39,095 bases of DNA, taken from positions 1 through 39,095 of the forward strand of contig JAKAYM010000003.1 of the NCBI GenBank assembly GCA_021826795.1, given 5' to 3'. The notes under the pieces are model-generated. The model was not told the DNA's origin. It did not search any database and worked only from the letters and a program-made list of their open reading frames with translations. This document shows, in pieces, positions 8,862 through 14,378 of the stretch (position 1 is its first letter; each line of letters opens with the position of its first letter). Source of the stretch: Thermoplasmata archaeon (GTDB lineage: Archaea; Thermoplasmatota; Thermoplasmata; Thermoplasmatales; Thermoplasmataceae). The position numbers and the translations under genes are program-made.

Positions 8862-9134
8862 TTATTTTGTAAGTACTATTTCTATGGATGAAACGTTTGA
8901 AGGCCCATTTTCTCCTTCTAGCGTTTCTGTATCAAGCTTGATGCTTTCATATGTTGCTGTCTGGATAAATTTATGCTTGGTAATTTCTGCAATATCAACT
9001 GCCTTGCTTATGGCTTTTCCTCTTGCTTTTATCACTATTCTATTTATATCAGAATTATTAAACTGAGTCACAATAGCCAGTACATAGTTCATAGTTGGTT
9101 TTCTTCCCACAAAGATTATGTTTTCTTCAGACAT
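8862..9134 (-). CDS. albA: Alba (Sac10b) DNA/RNA-binding chromatin protein
   Basis: This is a 90-residue archaeal chromatin protein that coats double-stranded DNA and also binds RNA as a dimer. The N-terminal nucleic-acid-binding segment IIFVGRKPTMNYVLA (K12 corresponds to the acetylatable Lys16 of Sulfolobus Alba) and the following VIKARGKAISKAVDIAEI are diagnostic. The length is typical. The gene lies between the polyprenyl synthase operon and an Lrp-type regulator on the same strand, with gaps of 79 and 53 nt, so it probably has its own promoter; attatatatt lies about 35-40 nt before the start. Confidence 0.95.
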   Translation of the reverse strand: MSEENIIFVGRKPTMNYVLAIVTQFNNSDINRIVIKARGKAISKAVDIAEITKHKFIQTATYESIKLDTETLEGENGPSNVSSIEIVLTK

Positions 9135-9974: not shown

Positions 9975-10059
9975 GCAAGGGTAACTAAGCTTGGCCAAAG
10001 GTGTAGGACTTAAGATTCTATCTCGAAGGAGTTCGCGGGTTCAAATCCCGTCCCTTGCA
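9975..10059 (+). tRNA. tRNA-Leu (anticodon UAA)
   Basis: The 85-nt cloverleaf has acceptor arms gcaaggg/cccttgc, a five-pair anticodon stem (tagga/ttcta) closing the loop CTTAAGA, and hence anticodon TAA. A long class II variable arm (about tctcgaaggagttc) and the T arm cgggttcaaatcccg are present. Discriminator base A fits leucine. CCA is not encoded. No intron is seen. It marks the left edge of the accessory island. Confidence 0.95.
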
Positions 10060-10202
10060 TGATTATAAAAGTTCAATGCAGTAACATGCTAGGTTAGTGT
10101 TCTCAATTCTTTATTTATATACTTCCGATCCTGTTTTTGTAATATAAAAATAACATTATATAATTACTGGATTATATTATAAGTATGCTATAACGAAAAA
10201 TG

Positions 10203-10210
10203 TATATATA
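10203..10210 (+). promoter_or_regulatory. TATA box of the Panacea/RelE operon
   Basis: TATATATA lies 20 nt before ATG 10230, the spacing expected when transcription starts at or near the start codon, so the mRNA should be leaderless. The surrounding 150 bases are extremely A+T-rich. They contain short palindromic words where an autoregulating antitoxin could bind, but no single operator stands out. Confidence 0.5.
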
Positions 10211-10229
10211 GTGATTTTAATTGTAGTAT

Positions 10230-10799
10230 ATGGAGAAAGTAAAAATAAGCGGAGTAGACCTTGTTAAATATCTATTAAGCAAATATGGTCCATTGTCCCA
10301 GAAGAAATTACAAAAACTTTCTTATTTTGCTGAATATGAATATGTTAAAAAATATGGAAAAAGATTATCTGATCTATCATTCAAGCGTTATTATTTTGGT
10401 CCTTATTCTGAAGATATAAAAAACATTGAAGACCTTGAAGAAGATATTATAATTAAAGAACAGGCAGGTACCAATCCTGCAAAGGAATCAGAGCTTATTA
10501 ATGATGATTTTAAAATAGATAATAAAACCTCAGTTATTATAGATAATCTTATAAAACCATATATTAATAAAAATGGAAAGGAACTTGAGGAACTGGCAGA
10601 TAAAACGGAGCCTTATATCGATGCAGAAGATTTCGACAATCCTATAGACCTTGACAGCTTTGCATGGTTTTACAGTGAAGTTAATTCTGATGATTTCTGG
10701 AAAAATGCCGAAGAAATAGACAAAGAGAATATCCGAAAAGGAATATATGGTAGGCATATAATAAAAGATGATTCTGACATAGATTCTCTATTTTCATGA
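10230..10799 (+). CDS. Panacea-domain (DUF4065/SocA-like) antitoxin
   Basis: This is a 189-residue acidic protein with a Panacea domain over about residues 9-130. The family start LVKYLLSKYGPLSQKKLQKL is followed by SYFAEYEYVKKYGKRL and RYYFGPYSEDI, the conserved hallmark (a helix, then YxFGPYS). Panacea proteins act as antitoxins for many unrelated toxin folds; SocA is the best-known relative. The stop is 5 nt before a RelE-like ORF, giving the antitoxin-first order of type II modules. There is no separate HTH domain. Its location just after a tRNA gene and before IS debris suggests acquisition by transfer. Neutralisation of the partner is inferred. Confidence 0.85.
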   Translation: MEKVKISGVDLVKYLLSKYGPLSQKKLQKLSYFAEYEYVKKYGKRLSDLSFKRYYFGPYSEDIKNIEDLEEDIIIKEQAGTNPAKESELINDDFKIDNKTSVIIDNLIKPYINKNGKELEELADKTEPYIDAEDFDNPIDLDSFAWFYSEVNSDDFWKNAEEIDKENIRKGIYGRHIIKDDSDIDSLFS

Positions 10800-10804
10800 T
10801 TTAA

Positions 10805-11089
10805 ATGTGTGATAATTATTCTATTGATTTATCTGCTATAGAAGATTATATACAAAAGGTTAAAGATAAAAATATCAAAGAACAGATTAAAAAGAAAATA
10901 TATGCGGTGAAGGAAAATCCCTATATCGGTGCCACTAAAACAGGCCGTATCAAAAATTACAGAACAGTAAAAGTAAACAGGCAAAAAATCGTAATACTCT
11001 ATAGAATAGAGGAAGAAGACTGCATGGCCATATTTATAAAAATTGGCACACATGATGAAGTTTATAATAAAACCTATGGGAAAAGATAA
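10805..11089 (+). CDS. RelE/ParE-superfamily toxin
   Basis: This is a 94-residue basic protein with the compact RelE/ParE order: two N-terminal helices rich in Lys (DYIQKVKDKNIKEQIKKKI), then KTGRIKNYRTVKVNRQKIVI, ILYRIEEEDC and IFIKIGTHDEVY at the C-terminus. RelE members cleave mRNA on the ribosome and ParE members poison gyrase; which applies cannot be told. Candidate catalytic basic residues are in the RTVKVNRQK strand and the terminal H-x-x-x-Y. It starts 5 nt after the Panacea antitoxin, so the two are one operon. It appears intact. Confidence 0.8.
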   Translation: MCDNYSIDLSAIEDYIQKVKDKNIKEQIKKKIYAVKENPYIGATKTGRIKNYRTVKVNRQKIVILYRIEEEDCMAIFIKIGTHDEVYNKTYGKR

Positions 11090-11111
11090 AGGCCATTAAA
11101 AATAAATATTA

Positions 11112-11379
11112 TCATTCATCAGATCTGTATTCATGTCTCCTGGCCTTATCCACCAGGTACAATCGATAGGTTATGAAAAAGGCATTTCTCTGCATGGATT
11201 TATTCTCATCATTCCAGTTCCTTTCTTCCTCCTTCTAAGAACTGATCCTTCCATTTGTAGAACATTGATACAGCTATTCCATGGTTCCTGCATATCTCTG
11301 CTATGGTAATATCAGGATTCTGGAATGATTCCATTATAATATTATACTTCTCCTCACCGGTCCATATTCTTCCAGGCAT
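11112..11379 (-). pseudogene. Decayed IS3/IS911-type orfA (HTH transposase subunit)
   Basis: On the minus strand, ATG 11379 opens a 56-codon frame ending at 11209. Its product has the helix-turn-helix of IS3-type OrfA proteins: RIWTGEEKYNIIMESF, then ITIAEICRNHGIAVSMFYKW. Beyond the stop, coding-like sequence continues in the next frame (from codon 11219 to TGA at 11112), which suggests a frameshift. No orfB catalytic domain follows, so this is a remnant rather than a working element. Confidence 0.7.
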
Positions 11380-11748
11380 TTAGATTACCTTGCTAATATA
11401 TTTATATAAATTATTCTTTATATATATCTATTTAGATTTGCATAGGTTTAAACTATCTATAACTACTAATGAACTACACTTTGGAATTCTGAAGAAGCTT
11501 TCAATGAAGGAAATAGTGAAAAACTATAGAGTAGATAACGCTAAAGTGAATAACTATTTAGCGGTGGCATAAAGGAATGTTAAGTATAGGTTTTTCATAG
11601 AAGTAAAATAATTACATTATCCAAATTATTTATTTGAATTTAAGAGTAAAACATTTTGACTCAAATTAAGGCTAAGACTATTTATAATAGCCGTATATTG
11701 CAATACTTTAATTTCACCTTGGGATTCCTTACATAGTTTATGAATATT
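11380..11748. other. A+T-rich gap with no recognised gene
   Basis: This gap lies between the orfA remnant and the broken radical SAM gene. A plus-strand ORF (11390-11572) is open but begins with a low-complexity hydrophobic run. Its end (LSMKEIVKNYRVDNAKVNNYL) is helical and could be the remnant of another mobile-element protein. On the minus strand the radical SAM frame stays open past its TGA for about 40 codons with no cysteine motif of the expected kind. I see no RNA gene or long repeat. Confidence 0.35.
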
Positions 11749-12687
11749 TCAATTTTTAGACCTTAGTGGGCATTTTAGCTGTGCCGGATTCCCAGATAAC
11801 TGACCCCTAACCCAATATGTCAATTTATCAGTGTTTATATTTACTGTTCCATCTTCATTTATTTTCCATATAGTATTCTTATCGTCATATAAGGCTACAG
11901 TACATTTCTGTATGCTACCATCAGACCTTATAACATATTCCGAGAACGAGGCGTCATAACACATTATACAAGCATCTCTATACAATGTTAAATGTAATTT
12001 CCTCGCTTTTAATGTCAGGGTTGTTATCATATTTTTCACTATCTCAGGATTTTCTATAACCGGTAAATCATTGTCATTTTTCCCACCCAGTTTAGATAGC
12101 CCACGTATAAATAACAAAAATCTATCATCATATGCAAAATCCTCTGATAATTTGTCGATGAATTTTGATATACCTTCATAATTATTTTTATTTAAATGTA
12201 GCCGAATTATGATTGATGATCTTAAGTTACTATTATGTAGATTCACTAAATTCCGATATATAATTTTGAAAGAGCCATTTCCAACTCTGGTTATCCTGAG
12301 TTTATCGTGCAGATCCTGATTTCCATCAAAAGAAATTTGAAAGCGGTTAACTCCCAACTCATTCAATTCATATAACTTCTTTAATGTTAGTAAACTACCA
12401 TTTGTGGTCATAGATGATATGAGCGTAAAATTGTATTTCTCTGACAAGCGGTGTGAAAATTGCATTATATCTTTTATTATATTATATGCAAGCATGGGCT
12501 CTCCTCCAAACCAATCTATGGTTAATTCTTCAAGTGTAGGTGCTCTATTCAATATCTAATTTTTAATACCGTTAAAAGTTTTAGTTTCCATCTTTTTAAG
12601 AATAAAATTTTCATAACAATAAACACACCGAAAATTGCATAGCTCGGTAGGCATGATTATTAATATCAGATTTTTATTGTATATCAT
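11749..12687 (-). pseudogene. Radical SAM/SPASM peptide-maturase-like gene interrupted by an in-frame TAG
   Basis: Read from ATG 12687, the frame gives a radical SAM protein with CxxxCxxC at C17, C21 and C24 (IIMPTELCNFRCVYCYENF). Codon 44 is TAG (12556-12558). The same frame then continues with TIDWFGGEPML, the GGEP SAM-binding motif, and a 267-codon open stretch from TTG 12552. The C-terminus has SPASM-like cysteines (DACIMCYDAS, GSIQKC) but ends at LKCPLRSKN just where the final auxiliary-cluster cysteines should be. The architecture is that of anSME/peptide-maturase enzymes that modify ribosomal peptides. Because the amber separates the 4Fe-4S motif from the rest, the gene is probably dead unless the stop is read through. 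Replacement of a Tyr codon is the simplest origin. Confidence 0.75.
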
Positions 12688-12708
12688 AAATTTCAGAATA
12701 AAATAATA

Positions 12709-12849
12709 TTAATAAAGTATTTCAAGCTCTACGCCACATCTTAAGTTAGCCATTTTCGGGCTTATTGGATCATTCTCTCCATTAATTTCAGAATATTTTA
12801 TCACACCAAATCTATCAACTTCTATACTCCATTTTATATGTTCTTTCAT
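12709..12849 (-). CDS. 46-aa ORF heading the radical SAM locus; possible precursor peptide or N-terminal piece
   Basis: ATG 12849 to TAA 12709 encodes 46 residues: a charged N-terminal half (MKEHIKWSIEVDRFGVIKY), a Gly/Asn/Pro linker and a C-terminus with one Cys (ANLRCGVELEILY). It lies 21 nt upstream of the radical SAM ATG, downstream of a TATA-like element, and is the first gene after the divergent promoter. Position and size suit a modified-peptide precursor. However, its frame is the same as that of the radical SAM gene, so it could equally be the enzyme's own N-terminus cut off by a TAA. I do not recognise a leader family. Confidence 0.4.
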   Translation of the reverse strand: MKEHIKWSIEVDRFGVIKYSEINGENDPISPKMANLRCGVELEILY

Positions 12850-12905
12850 GTCTATCAAGATATTGATGCGATATATGTATATATAAAGGTTTGTATTTTA
12901 GGATT
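12850..12905. promoter_or_regulatory. Divergent promoter between the 46-aa ORF/radical SAM locus and the MFS exporter
   Basis: Only 56 bases separate the two divergent start codons. The run atatatgtatatataaagg (about 12871-12889) supplies TATA elements in both directions: about 20-27 nt before ATG 12906 rightward and about 25-35 nt before ATG 12849 leftward. Both mRNAs would then be leaderless or nearly so. The shared promoter suggests joint control of maturase and exporter. Confidence 0.5.
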
Positions 12906-14117
12906 ATGCTTAACAATTACGAAAAAATATATATTGCAATTTTTTTGAATTCTTTATTATATGGGGCAGCATTAATTTTCGTTGATTTAATTCTAATTAG
13001 AACCGGTTCGATATTGCTGGGGAGTATAACGTTATCTGTATTTTACATACCGGCTATATTTTCATTTATCATAGGGCCATTAACTGATAGCATAAAAAAT
13101 AAAAAATTACTATTAACATTTTCTGAAATGTTCAAGGTAGTTATTCTGTTTTTTATGCTTTTAGATCTGTTAAATTTTTCATTTAATAATTATATTATTT
13201 TTCTACTACTATTATTTATATTGCGGTTGTTATCAACTTTTTCTAATCTGAGTTTTATGGCTATCCAGCAACACATCGTTAAAAATGAAAGTTCCAAAAA
13301 ATATTTTAAAAATTTACATTCGGTGATTTTTATCTCATCAATTATTGGTCTTCTTTCACTTGGTATGTTATTAGCATATAATTATATATATTCAATACTA
13401 TTTATGCTTATAATTTATGGATTGGTGACCTCAGTTTTTCTATCGTTAGATGTTAGTGGAATAAAATTTGAAACCAAAAAATTCAGTTTAACTAAATTGA
13501 AGAGCCTTAGAGATAGCATACTATATTTAAAGAATAATAATACTATCGAACTTTTCACCATTTTGGCGATAGTTAATGGGGCGGCTATGGTAATGACTAT
13601 GCCCCTTATTGTGTTTATATCACATGATATAATAAAAGTAAGTGCAATTATATTAACATCATTCTATGTTTCTTCATTGCTTGGGAGCTTAATTGGTACG
13701 TTTTTAACTTCAAAAATAAAAACAGAGAGCAGGAAAATTATCCATAAATATTATATATTTATATCATTTTCATTTATATTCGTTTATTATATTATATATT
13801 TATCACATTATTATCTGTATTCAATCTATATTGTGTTGTTTGCAAGCGGATTTATGGAATCGATATTATCTTTATTCCATAGTCTTATTAATCTCAAGTA
13901 TATAGATAAAAATATCTCAGGCAGTATATATGGATTAAAAAATACATTAAATTCTATTGTTATCCCAATATTCGCCCTAATAATAGGATATATTTTATCG
14001 TCTTATATTTTAAAATACTCATTTATATTTATATCTGTCATTTTTTCTATAAATTTTTTTATTCTATTGTTCTTTAAAAATTTGCCTAAAGTACATAAAT
14101 CAACGACCCTCAATTGA
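12906..14117 (+). CDS. Major facilitator superfamily exporter
   Basis: This protein of about 403 residues has twelve predicted membrane segments in two halves and belongs to the MFS drug/macrolide-efflux type. The loop between segments 2 and 3 carries the MFS-like GPLTDSIKNKKLLL. The central loop (about residues 175-205) is basic. It is very A+T-rich and full of Ile/Leu/Tyr/Phe/Asn, unlike the neighbouring core genes, which suggests recent acquisition. ATG 12906 is chosen over TTG 12891 because TATATATAAA lies about 20-28 nt before it. Divergent pairing with a radical SAM/SPASM gene suggests export of a modified peptide, but the substrate is unproven. Confidence 0.8.
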   Translation: MLNNYEKIYIAIFLNSLLYGAALIFVDLILIRTGSILLGSITLSVFYIPAIFSFIIGPLTDSIKNKKLLLTFSEMFKVVILFFMLLDLLNFSFNNYIIFLLLLFILRLLSTFSNLSFMAIQQHIVKNESSKKYFKNLHSVIFISSIIGLLSLGMLLAYNYIYSILFMLIIYGLVTSVFLSLDVSGIKFETKKFSLTKLKSLRDSILYLKNNNTIELFTILAIVNGAAMVMTMPLIVFISHDIIKVSAIILTSFYVSSLLGSLIGTFLTSKIKTESRKIIHKYYIFISFSFIFVYYIIYLSHYYLYSIYIVLFASGFMESILSLFHSLINLKYIDKNISGSIYGLKNTLNSIVIPIFALIIGYILSSYILKYSFIFISVIFSINFFILLFFKNLPKVHKSTTLN

Positions 14118-14269
14118 TTTGATAGACTCATTCCAGAATATAACTTCGTGGAGATTTCCCGTGATGGATTCTCCTGTTTTACCTCACTTATCGATACACT
14201 TAATGATTTGTGAATTCAAAGCGGTATATTCCAATATTTTATTACCTCCTGGATTCAAAAGAGGTATTT

Positions 14270-14309
14270 CTCCCTGTTATTTAATGATCATTTCATTATT
14301 AACAGGGAG
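14270..14309. repeat. Strong 16-bp imperfect hairpin
   Basis: Outer arms CTCCCTGTTA (14270-14279) and TAACAGGGAG (14300-14309) are perfectly complementary. Inside them TAATGA (14282-14287) pairs with TCATTA (14293-14298), leaving a 5-nt loop and a 2/1-nt bulge. It stands in the 261-base gap between the MFS and TPP-enzyme genes and is followed by a T-rich stretch. It could be a terminator, the tip of a decayed mobile element, or a structured 5' leader; no transposase is attached. Confidence 0.7.
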
Positions 14310-14378
14310 GTTTATATTTACACATAATATGATACATAACCTTGGAAAGACTTAAATTCATAAAAGAGATTTGATTTA

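What the first reader, a model, noticed from the sequence alone, without database searches (positions are those of the whole stretch)
11749..12849. Radical SAM/SPASM maturase locus split by two in-frame stops, with a possible peptide precursor at its head
One minus-strand frame from 12849 to 11749 reads: a 46-codon ORF, TAA (12709), a radical SAM start with CNFRCVYC, TAG at codon 44 (12556), then the GGEP motif and SPASM-like cysteines. The C-terminus stops where the last auxiliary-cluster cysteines should lie. Established: SPASM radical SAM enzymes often modify short ribosomal peptides encoded just upstream, with a dedicated exporter nearby, and an MFS gene diverges here. Inference: either a newly decayed modified-peptide pathway with its precursor still visible, or a single enzyme broken twice.
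Basis: partly seen in the sequence, partly recalled or inferred. Interest (0 to 1): 0.72.

Follow-up and report, generated by a model that had tools for sequence, protein, structure and literature searches.

The report
Recently broken archaeal peptide-modifying gene cassette
An archaeon carries a small inserted gene set that probably once made a chemically modified peptide; its transporter gene is still whole, but the modifying enzyme is interrupted by one stop codon, and intact versions of the set exist in related archaea.

Summary
The minus-strand frame holds a 46-codon ORF, TAA (12709), a radical SAM start and TAG (12556). The nearest intact relatives start at the Met aligned with 12687, so the TAA ends a separate upstream gene and only the TAG breaks the enzyme. 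The C-terminus is complete: relatives share its three-Cys, twitch-like tail, not a SPASM tail. In 7 Thermoplasmatales orthologous places, 6 have upstream DNA held and all 6 carry a 34-40 aa ORF with a shared leader motif and a Cys/Asn core; an MFS gene adjoins at 7 of 7. Across wider relatives the leader motif plus a later Cys lies upstream at 21 of 89 loci (4 of 55 among loci not used to define it) against 7 of 1950 control windows. This is a precursor/maturase/transporter RiPP-type cassette in a low-GC island after tRNA-Leu (site empty in 4 of 10 congeners). The enzyme is a young pseudogene; the window precursor has lost the second half of the conserved core; the MFS frame is open (dN/dS 0.21 to its nearest relative). 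Two congeners keep an MFS gene (open in one, broken in the other) and a precursor remnant without the enzyme. The chemistry is unknown; Asn-x-x-Cys is the likeliest target.

The parts
12709..12858 (-). Small precursor-like ORF, 46 codons from ATG 12849 (49 from TTG 12858, which aligns with the MID start of G006), with leader motif VDRFGVI and a core CGVELEILY that lacks the conserved Asn and last Cys; TAA at 12711-12709 is its own stop
   Evidence: found as one unique sequence on 16 contigs
11749..12687 (-). Compact radical SAM/twitch-like peptide maturase, interrupted by TAG at 12558-12556 (young pseudogene)
12891..14117 (+). MFS transporter gene, open frame, divergent from the precursor (likely start ATG 12906)
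12859..12905 (.). Divergent intergenic stretch between precursor and MFS, with a TATA-like TTTATATATA at 12887-12878 on the minus strand (by inspection)
9975..10059 (+). tRNA-Leu (TAA), left border of the island
10060..14345 (.). Low-GC island (28.4% against 36.7% for the window), absent from the same site in 4 of 10 congeners

Best explanation
A three-gene RiPP-type cassette that has recently died. In its intact form, seen in relatives, a 34-40 aa precursor is made; its N-terminal leader motif (hydrophobic-[DN]-x-[YFH]-G-x-hydrophobic) brings it to a compact radical SAM/twitch enzyme that has no room for an RRE domain; the enzyme makes a radical-based modification in the C-terminal core, most likely at Asn-x-x-Cys; and an MFS protein exports the product or protects the cell. 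In the window the enzyme carries one stop codon, the precursor is still an open frame but lacks the conserved Asn and last Cys of the core, and the MFS gene is open. The locus is therefore most likely a non-producer that keeps the transporter. Shown: gene order, motifs, stop, island, remnants elsewhere. Inferred: leader recognition, the chemistry, export or immunity, the non-producer state.
For: Nearest intact relatives start at Met 12687. Small ORFs with the leader motif at 6 of 6 orthologous places with upstream DNA held, stop-to-start gaps 20 nt in G006 and 21 nt in the window. MFS adjacent at 7 of 7 and MFS of the window's type found at E<=1e-20 in 3 of 12 genomes, all with the cassette or its remnant. 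Leader motif plus later Cys upstream at 21 of 89 wider relatives against 7 of 1950 control windows. Asn-x(2-3)-Cys in 25 of 30 precursor tails, shuffles mean 10.0, maximum 18. Decay: TAG; window differs at 2 columns invariant in the other 25 rows, G003:C56 (also with a stop) at 3, the 24 unbroken rows at 7 in all; remnants without the enzyme in G003:C31 and G009:C8. Empty site in 4 of 10 congeners.
Against: No biochemical proof of any step. The window precursor scores weakly against the profiles. By a looser count of departures from near-invariant columns the window (3) is not exceptional; three unbroken rows have 6-7. Enzyme dN/dS to G006 is still low (0.13, dS near saturation), so decay rests mostly on the stop. 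62 of 90 wider relatives show no motif ORF on either side. The remnants in G003:C31 and G009:C8 lack the core Asn and last Cys too, so the core change may be older than the stop or be a different core. The MFS is broken in G003:C31, so it is not always kept.
Confidence: 0.74

Rival explanations
1. One enzyme broken twice: the 46 codons are the N-terminus of the same radical SAM protein.
For: Same reading frame; some larger maturase models extend 70-80 positions further upstream (profile start 73-86).
Against: P0002 and P0003 start at the aligned Met, and relatives have a separate small ORF in front, sometimes in another frame.
Confidence: 0.03
2. The TAG is a sequencing or assembly error and the cassette works.
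For: Enzyme otherwise intact, dN/dS to G006 0.13; window DNA only, reads not available.
Against: The only near-identical protein found (P0001, 3 sequences on 5 contigs) is 248 aa long and starts after the TAG; no full-length relative above 58% identity was found; two otherwise invariant columns changed; the precursor core lacks conserved residues. The 5 contigs could not be read, and a search with the 43-aa first fragment found no candidate.
Confidence: 0.1
3. The stop is read through or recoded (for example pyrrolysine), or the two pieces act as a split enzyme restarted at TTG 12552.
For: G003:C56 also has an internal TAG; a TTG follows the window's TAG closely.
Against: No PylS over the cut-off in 61 genomes of the family, against 1 of 14 control genomes (the window's own genome is not held); the two TAGs lie at different positions; both broken copies depart at invariant columns.
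Confidence: 0.04
4. The 46-codon ORF is not a precursor but chance coding or leader sequence next to the MFS promoter, and the enzyme acts on something else.
For: Weak profile scores; the leader motif occurs in 4 of 828 window ORFs; core incomplete.
Against: The motif sits in the one ORF directly before the enzyme, as at 6 of 6 orthologous places, with a stop-to-start gap like that of G006, and the stretch is similar in DNA to G003:C31 and G009:C8.
Confidence: 0.09

Closest known systems
CteB, thioether maturase (PDB 5wgg/5why)
   Same: Closest solved structure by profile (E 1.3e-26) and by fold (E 1.1e-15, TMq 0.75); peptide maturase with Cys-rich substrate (recalled)
   Different: 21% identity; 418-440 residues against 311; CteB has an extra N-terminal domain and a SPASM domain (recalled)
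TIGR04463 family radical SAM/SPASM RiPP maturase
   Same: Best NCBIfam match of 5 of 5 intact relatives tested
   Different: 119-141 bits against a cut-off of 525; the match starts at profile position 68-80 of 438
PapB-type ranthipeptide maturases (NF047865)
   Same: Among the best NCBIfam matches, 93-112 bits in 5 of 5; similar size (330 positions)
   Different: Cut-off 340 bits not reached; PapB makes Cys-Asp/Glu thioethers (PMC9413430, start of abstract in the listing), while the conserved core here is Asn-x-x-Cys
ChlB with its precursor leader (PDB 9gm3/9gmc)
   Same: Radical SAM enzyme solved with the leader region of its own precursor (title); fold match E 2.0e-12; profile match E 3e-12
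   Different: 16% identity; no paper on it found in the library, so the leaders could not be compared

Membership tests
Radical SAM superfamily | CxxxCxxC and GGEP motifs, Pfam PF04055 | tested here: met
   Motifs; piece after the TAG 41 bits, cut-off 29.5. The two motifs lie on opposite sides of the TAG
SPASM-domain enzymes | Seven-Cys C-terminal domain (recalled) or a SPASM NCBIfam model over its cut-off | tested here: not met
   Three invariant C-terminal Cys in 21 relatives; none of the 25 shown families per protein over its cut-off
Twitch-type radical SAM enzymes | C-x(9-15)-G-x4-C and one later Cys (recalled) | tested here: met
   C243-x13-G257-x4-C262 and C306 in P0002 numbering, same in the window; cluster binding not testable
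TIGR04463 maturases | Score over 525 bits | tested here: not met
   119-141 bits for 5 of 5 relatives
Radical SAM RiPP cassettes | Short precursor gene next to the maturase with a conserved leader and core | tested here: met
   6 of 6 orthologous places with upstream DNA held; wider relatives 21 of 89 upstream
Radical SAM RiPP cassettes | The enzyme modifies the precursor | not testable with these tools
   needs expression and mass spectrometry
Ranthipeptides or sactipeptides | Thioether from Cys to a side-chain or alpha carbon | not testable with these tools
   only the core motif is known
Pyrrolysine-decoding genes | PylS in the genome | tested here: not met
   0 of 61 family genomes over the cut-off; the window's own assembly is not held

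The most novel reading that the evidence does not exclude
The window holds a dying member of a widespread, so far unnamed RiPP class of bacteria and archaea: precursors with a hydrophobic-x-hydrophobic-[DN]-xx-G-x-hydrophobic leader and an Asn-x-x-Cys core, modified by a compact radical SAM/twitch enzyme without an RRE, with an MFS partner in Thermoplasmatales, where the maturase is lost repeatedly (stops at two different positions, two full losses) while the transporter outlasts it for a time, as expected of immune non-producers.
Probability: 0.33. Interest if true: 0.65.

Novelty: new variant of a known kind. Interest (0 to 1): 0.45.

Why it matters
It gives a concrete, testable precursor/maturase/transporter set in Thermoplasmatales, and a leader and core signature by which relatives can be found in bacteria and other archaea. 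If the MFS protein gives immunity, the intact, stop-carrying and remnant loci within one genus are a natural series for studying how peptide producers turn into non-producers.

Tried and rejected
Rejected: enzyme broken twice and missing C-terminal cysteines; SPASM membership; pyrrolysine. Tried without result: nine relatives' precursors and the window's ORF against NCBIfam and Pfam (weak matches, none over a cut-off); one bacterial precursor against the PDB (no meaningful match); the 43-aa first enzyme fragment against the protein collection (no candidate); the DNA round the TAG, with N at the stop, in viral contigs (0 matches); the window's own assembly (not held). A frameshift as the reason for the odd precursor core: the other two frames of the window show no Cys-rich continuation (by inspection). 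A duplicated tRNA end at the right border of the island: none evident. A class-wide search of 400 genomes at E<=1e-80 added no genome beyond the order search. Paper searches: (listings with the start of abstracts); passages only of PMC12350378, PMC9062424 and PMC12144867. Nothing seen there describes this cassette; most subscription papers are not in the library.

Full report
What is there. The piece after the TAG alone matches the radical SAM domain (PF04055, 41 bits, cut-off 29.5), and its best NCBIfam matches are peptide maturases, none of the 25 shown of 46 over its cut-off. An MFS gene diverges from the small ORF.

The host. A neighbouring gene is archaeal (AlbA, 8862-9134). The window's assembly is not held. 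So: a Thermoplasmata archaeon; the genus was not settled.

Where the enzyme begins and ends. The nearest full-length relatives, P0002 and P0003 (58% identical, 311 and 312 aa), start at the residue aligned with Met 12687, and the 21 aligned relatives share three invariant C-terminal cysteines that the window also has. So the TAA is outside the enzyme, the C-terminus is complete, and only the TAG breaks it. The tail is twitch-like rather than SPASM. An AlphaFold2 model of P0002 (mean pLDDT 90.7) is closest in the PDB to CteB, then anSME and ChlB.

Orthologous loci. Of 117 genomes of the order, 8 match at E<=1e-30; 7 places in 4 genomes (G003, G006, G068, G069) reach E<=3.2e-122. Six are open. 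G003:C56 has an internal TAG at another position; the TAG reported in G068:C72 is its terminal stop. At 6 of the 7 the DNA before the enzyme is held (G069 is cut by the contig end), and each has a small ORF of 34 to 40 aa with [ILVF]-D-x-[YFH]-G-x-[ITV] near its start and a core such as CPVVNFIC, CTIRNYAC, CKVINAGAC or CGCINISC at its end. Stop to chosen enzyme start is 10, 10, 10, 20 and 30 nt, and an 11-nt overlap in G068:C59; 21 nt in the window. An MFS gene adjoins at 7 of 7, downstream at six and divergent in G006, as in the window; those tested, 10 of 10 proteins including one from G009, pass the MFS_1 cut-off. In G003:C10 and G006 there is a second MFS gene.

The wider family. One scan of genome contigs (the best 80 of 498 relatives kept) and one of viral contigs (78) gave 158 loci; 90 have a long enzyme match on the expected strand. 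A small ORF with [ILVFM]x[ILVFM][DN]xxGx[ILVFMT] and a later Cys lies upstream at 21 of 89 and downstream at 7 of 88 (one of these, L058, looks spurious; L104 repeats L103), against 7 of 1950 control windows of the same size. The motif was written after 34 of these 90 loci had been viewed: among them it is upstream at 17 of 34, among the others at 4 of 55. The 21 lie in relatives at least 35% identical to one of the two query enzymes; 62 of 90 show none on either side. Some apparent precursors seen by eye (L031, L047, L102) are missed by the expression. The carriers include other archaea (records titled Marsarchaeota and Micrarchaeota), cyanobacteria, Pseudoalteromonas and actinobacteria. In the tails Asn-x(2-3)-Cys occurs in 25 of 30 precursors against a mean of 10.0 and a maximum of 18 in 2000 shuffles, and Cys-x(1-5)-Asn-x(2-4)-Cys in 19 of 30 against 3.4 and 10. 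Most of these were selected for having a Cys, none for having an Asn.

The window's own precursor. It has the leader motif (VDRFGVI), which occurs in 4 of 828 window ORFs. A profile of the six Thermoplasmatales precursors ranks it 2nd of 828 (E 0.22), one of 15 other leaders 4th of 828 (E 2.1). So profile evidence alone is weak; position, spacing and DNA similarity carry the case. Its tail CGVELEILY is as long as CGCINISCM of G006 but lacks the Asn and the later Cys; NLRC stands just before. The remnants in G003:C31 and G009:C8 also lack them, so the change may be older than the stop, or this branch had a different core.

Decay. Besides the TAG the window enzyme departs at 2 columns invariant in the other 25 rows, G003:C56 at 3, the 24 unbroken rows at 7 in all; by a looser count (near-invariant columns) the window has 3 and G003:C56 6, while three unbroken rows have 6 or 7, so that measure does not single it out. 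Pairwise dN/dS to G006 is still 0.13 with dS near saturation, so any break is recent. The only near-identical protein found is 248 aa long, starts after the TAG, and stands for 3 sequences on 5 contigs; the 46-aa product is one sequence on 16 contigs. Those contigs could not be read. In G003:C31 and G009:C8, which share their neighbour genes, there is an MFS gene 79-81% identical in DNA to the window's, a disrupted precursor remnant and no enzyme. That MFS is open in G009 and broken in G003. The MFS type was found at E<=1e-20 in 3 of 12 genomes, all three with the cassette or its remnant; dN/dS between window and G009 is 0.21. P0076 joins the first half of a P0003-like enzyme to an MFS-like end, probably another wrecked copy.

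The island. In 4 of 10 congeners (G001, G004, G007, G008) the DNA matching the window up to 10059, the end of tRNA-Leu, and the DNA from 14346 or 14379 onward lie next to each other (three of them looked at); the other six were not resolved. The window's extra 4.3 kb has 28.4% G+C against 36.7% for the window and also holds a SocA/ParE-like pair, a transposase-like fragment and a dispersed repeat.

Mechanism and limits. By the usual logic of radical SAM RiPP pathways (established knowledge) the leader binds the enzyme and the core is modified; the conserved Asn-x-x-Cys makes a cross-link at Cys or Asn the first guess. This and the role of the MFS protein are inference. The most economical reading of the loci is repeated loss of the maturase with the transporter kept for a time; G003:C31 shows that the transporter decays too.

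Novelty. Radical SAM RiPP cassettes are a known kind, and archaeal ones have been predicted in large numbers (PMC12144867, passages). Beyond the general radical SAM domain neither enzyme nor precursors reach a curated NCBIfam or Pfam cut-off among the families shown, and the nine paper searches did not show this cassette. I rate it a new variant of a known kind.

Noticed in passing
window 14226-14341: A stretch of about 116 bp that recurs in many places in at least 9 of the 10 genus genomes searched (listed rows; the list is cut); probably an IS end or other small dispersed repeat.
   Followed up: no
window 11209-11379 and 11220-11467: A 56-codon ORF that looks by eye like the start of a transposase (no family search made), in a stretch that is multi-copy in relatives.
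   Followed up: no
window 10230-11089: SocA/Panacea-like gene followed by a ParE-like toxin gene; 10056-11215 is 96% identical to the end of a contig of G001, whose tRNA-Leu site is empty, so this pair looks mobile.
   Followed up: partly
L218 (G003:C31) and L219 (G009:C8): MFS gene with a disrupted precursor remnant and no maturase, in the same gene neighbourhood in both genomes.
   Followed up: partly
L045, L081, L102, L105: Bacterial and viral-contig precursor-like ORFs with repeats of the type CTNxxxC; L045 and L102 have a second such ORF on the other side of the enzyme.
   Followed up: no
L046 around its enzyme: A precursor-like ORF (VTSHISLDQYGRPAVKG...) that starts with what looks like a signal peptide, upstream of the enzyme in a Sphingomonadales record.
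   Followed up: no
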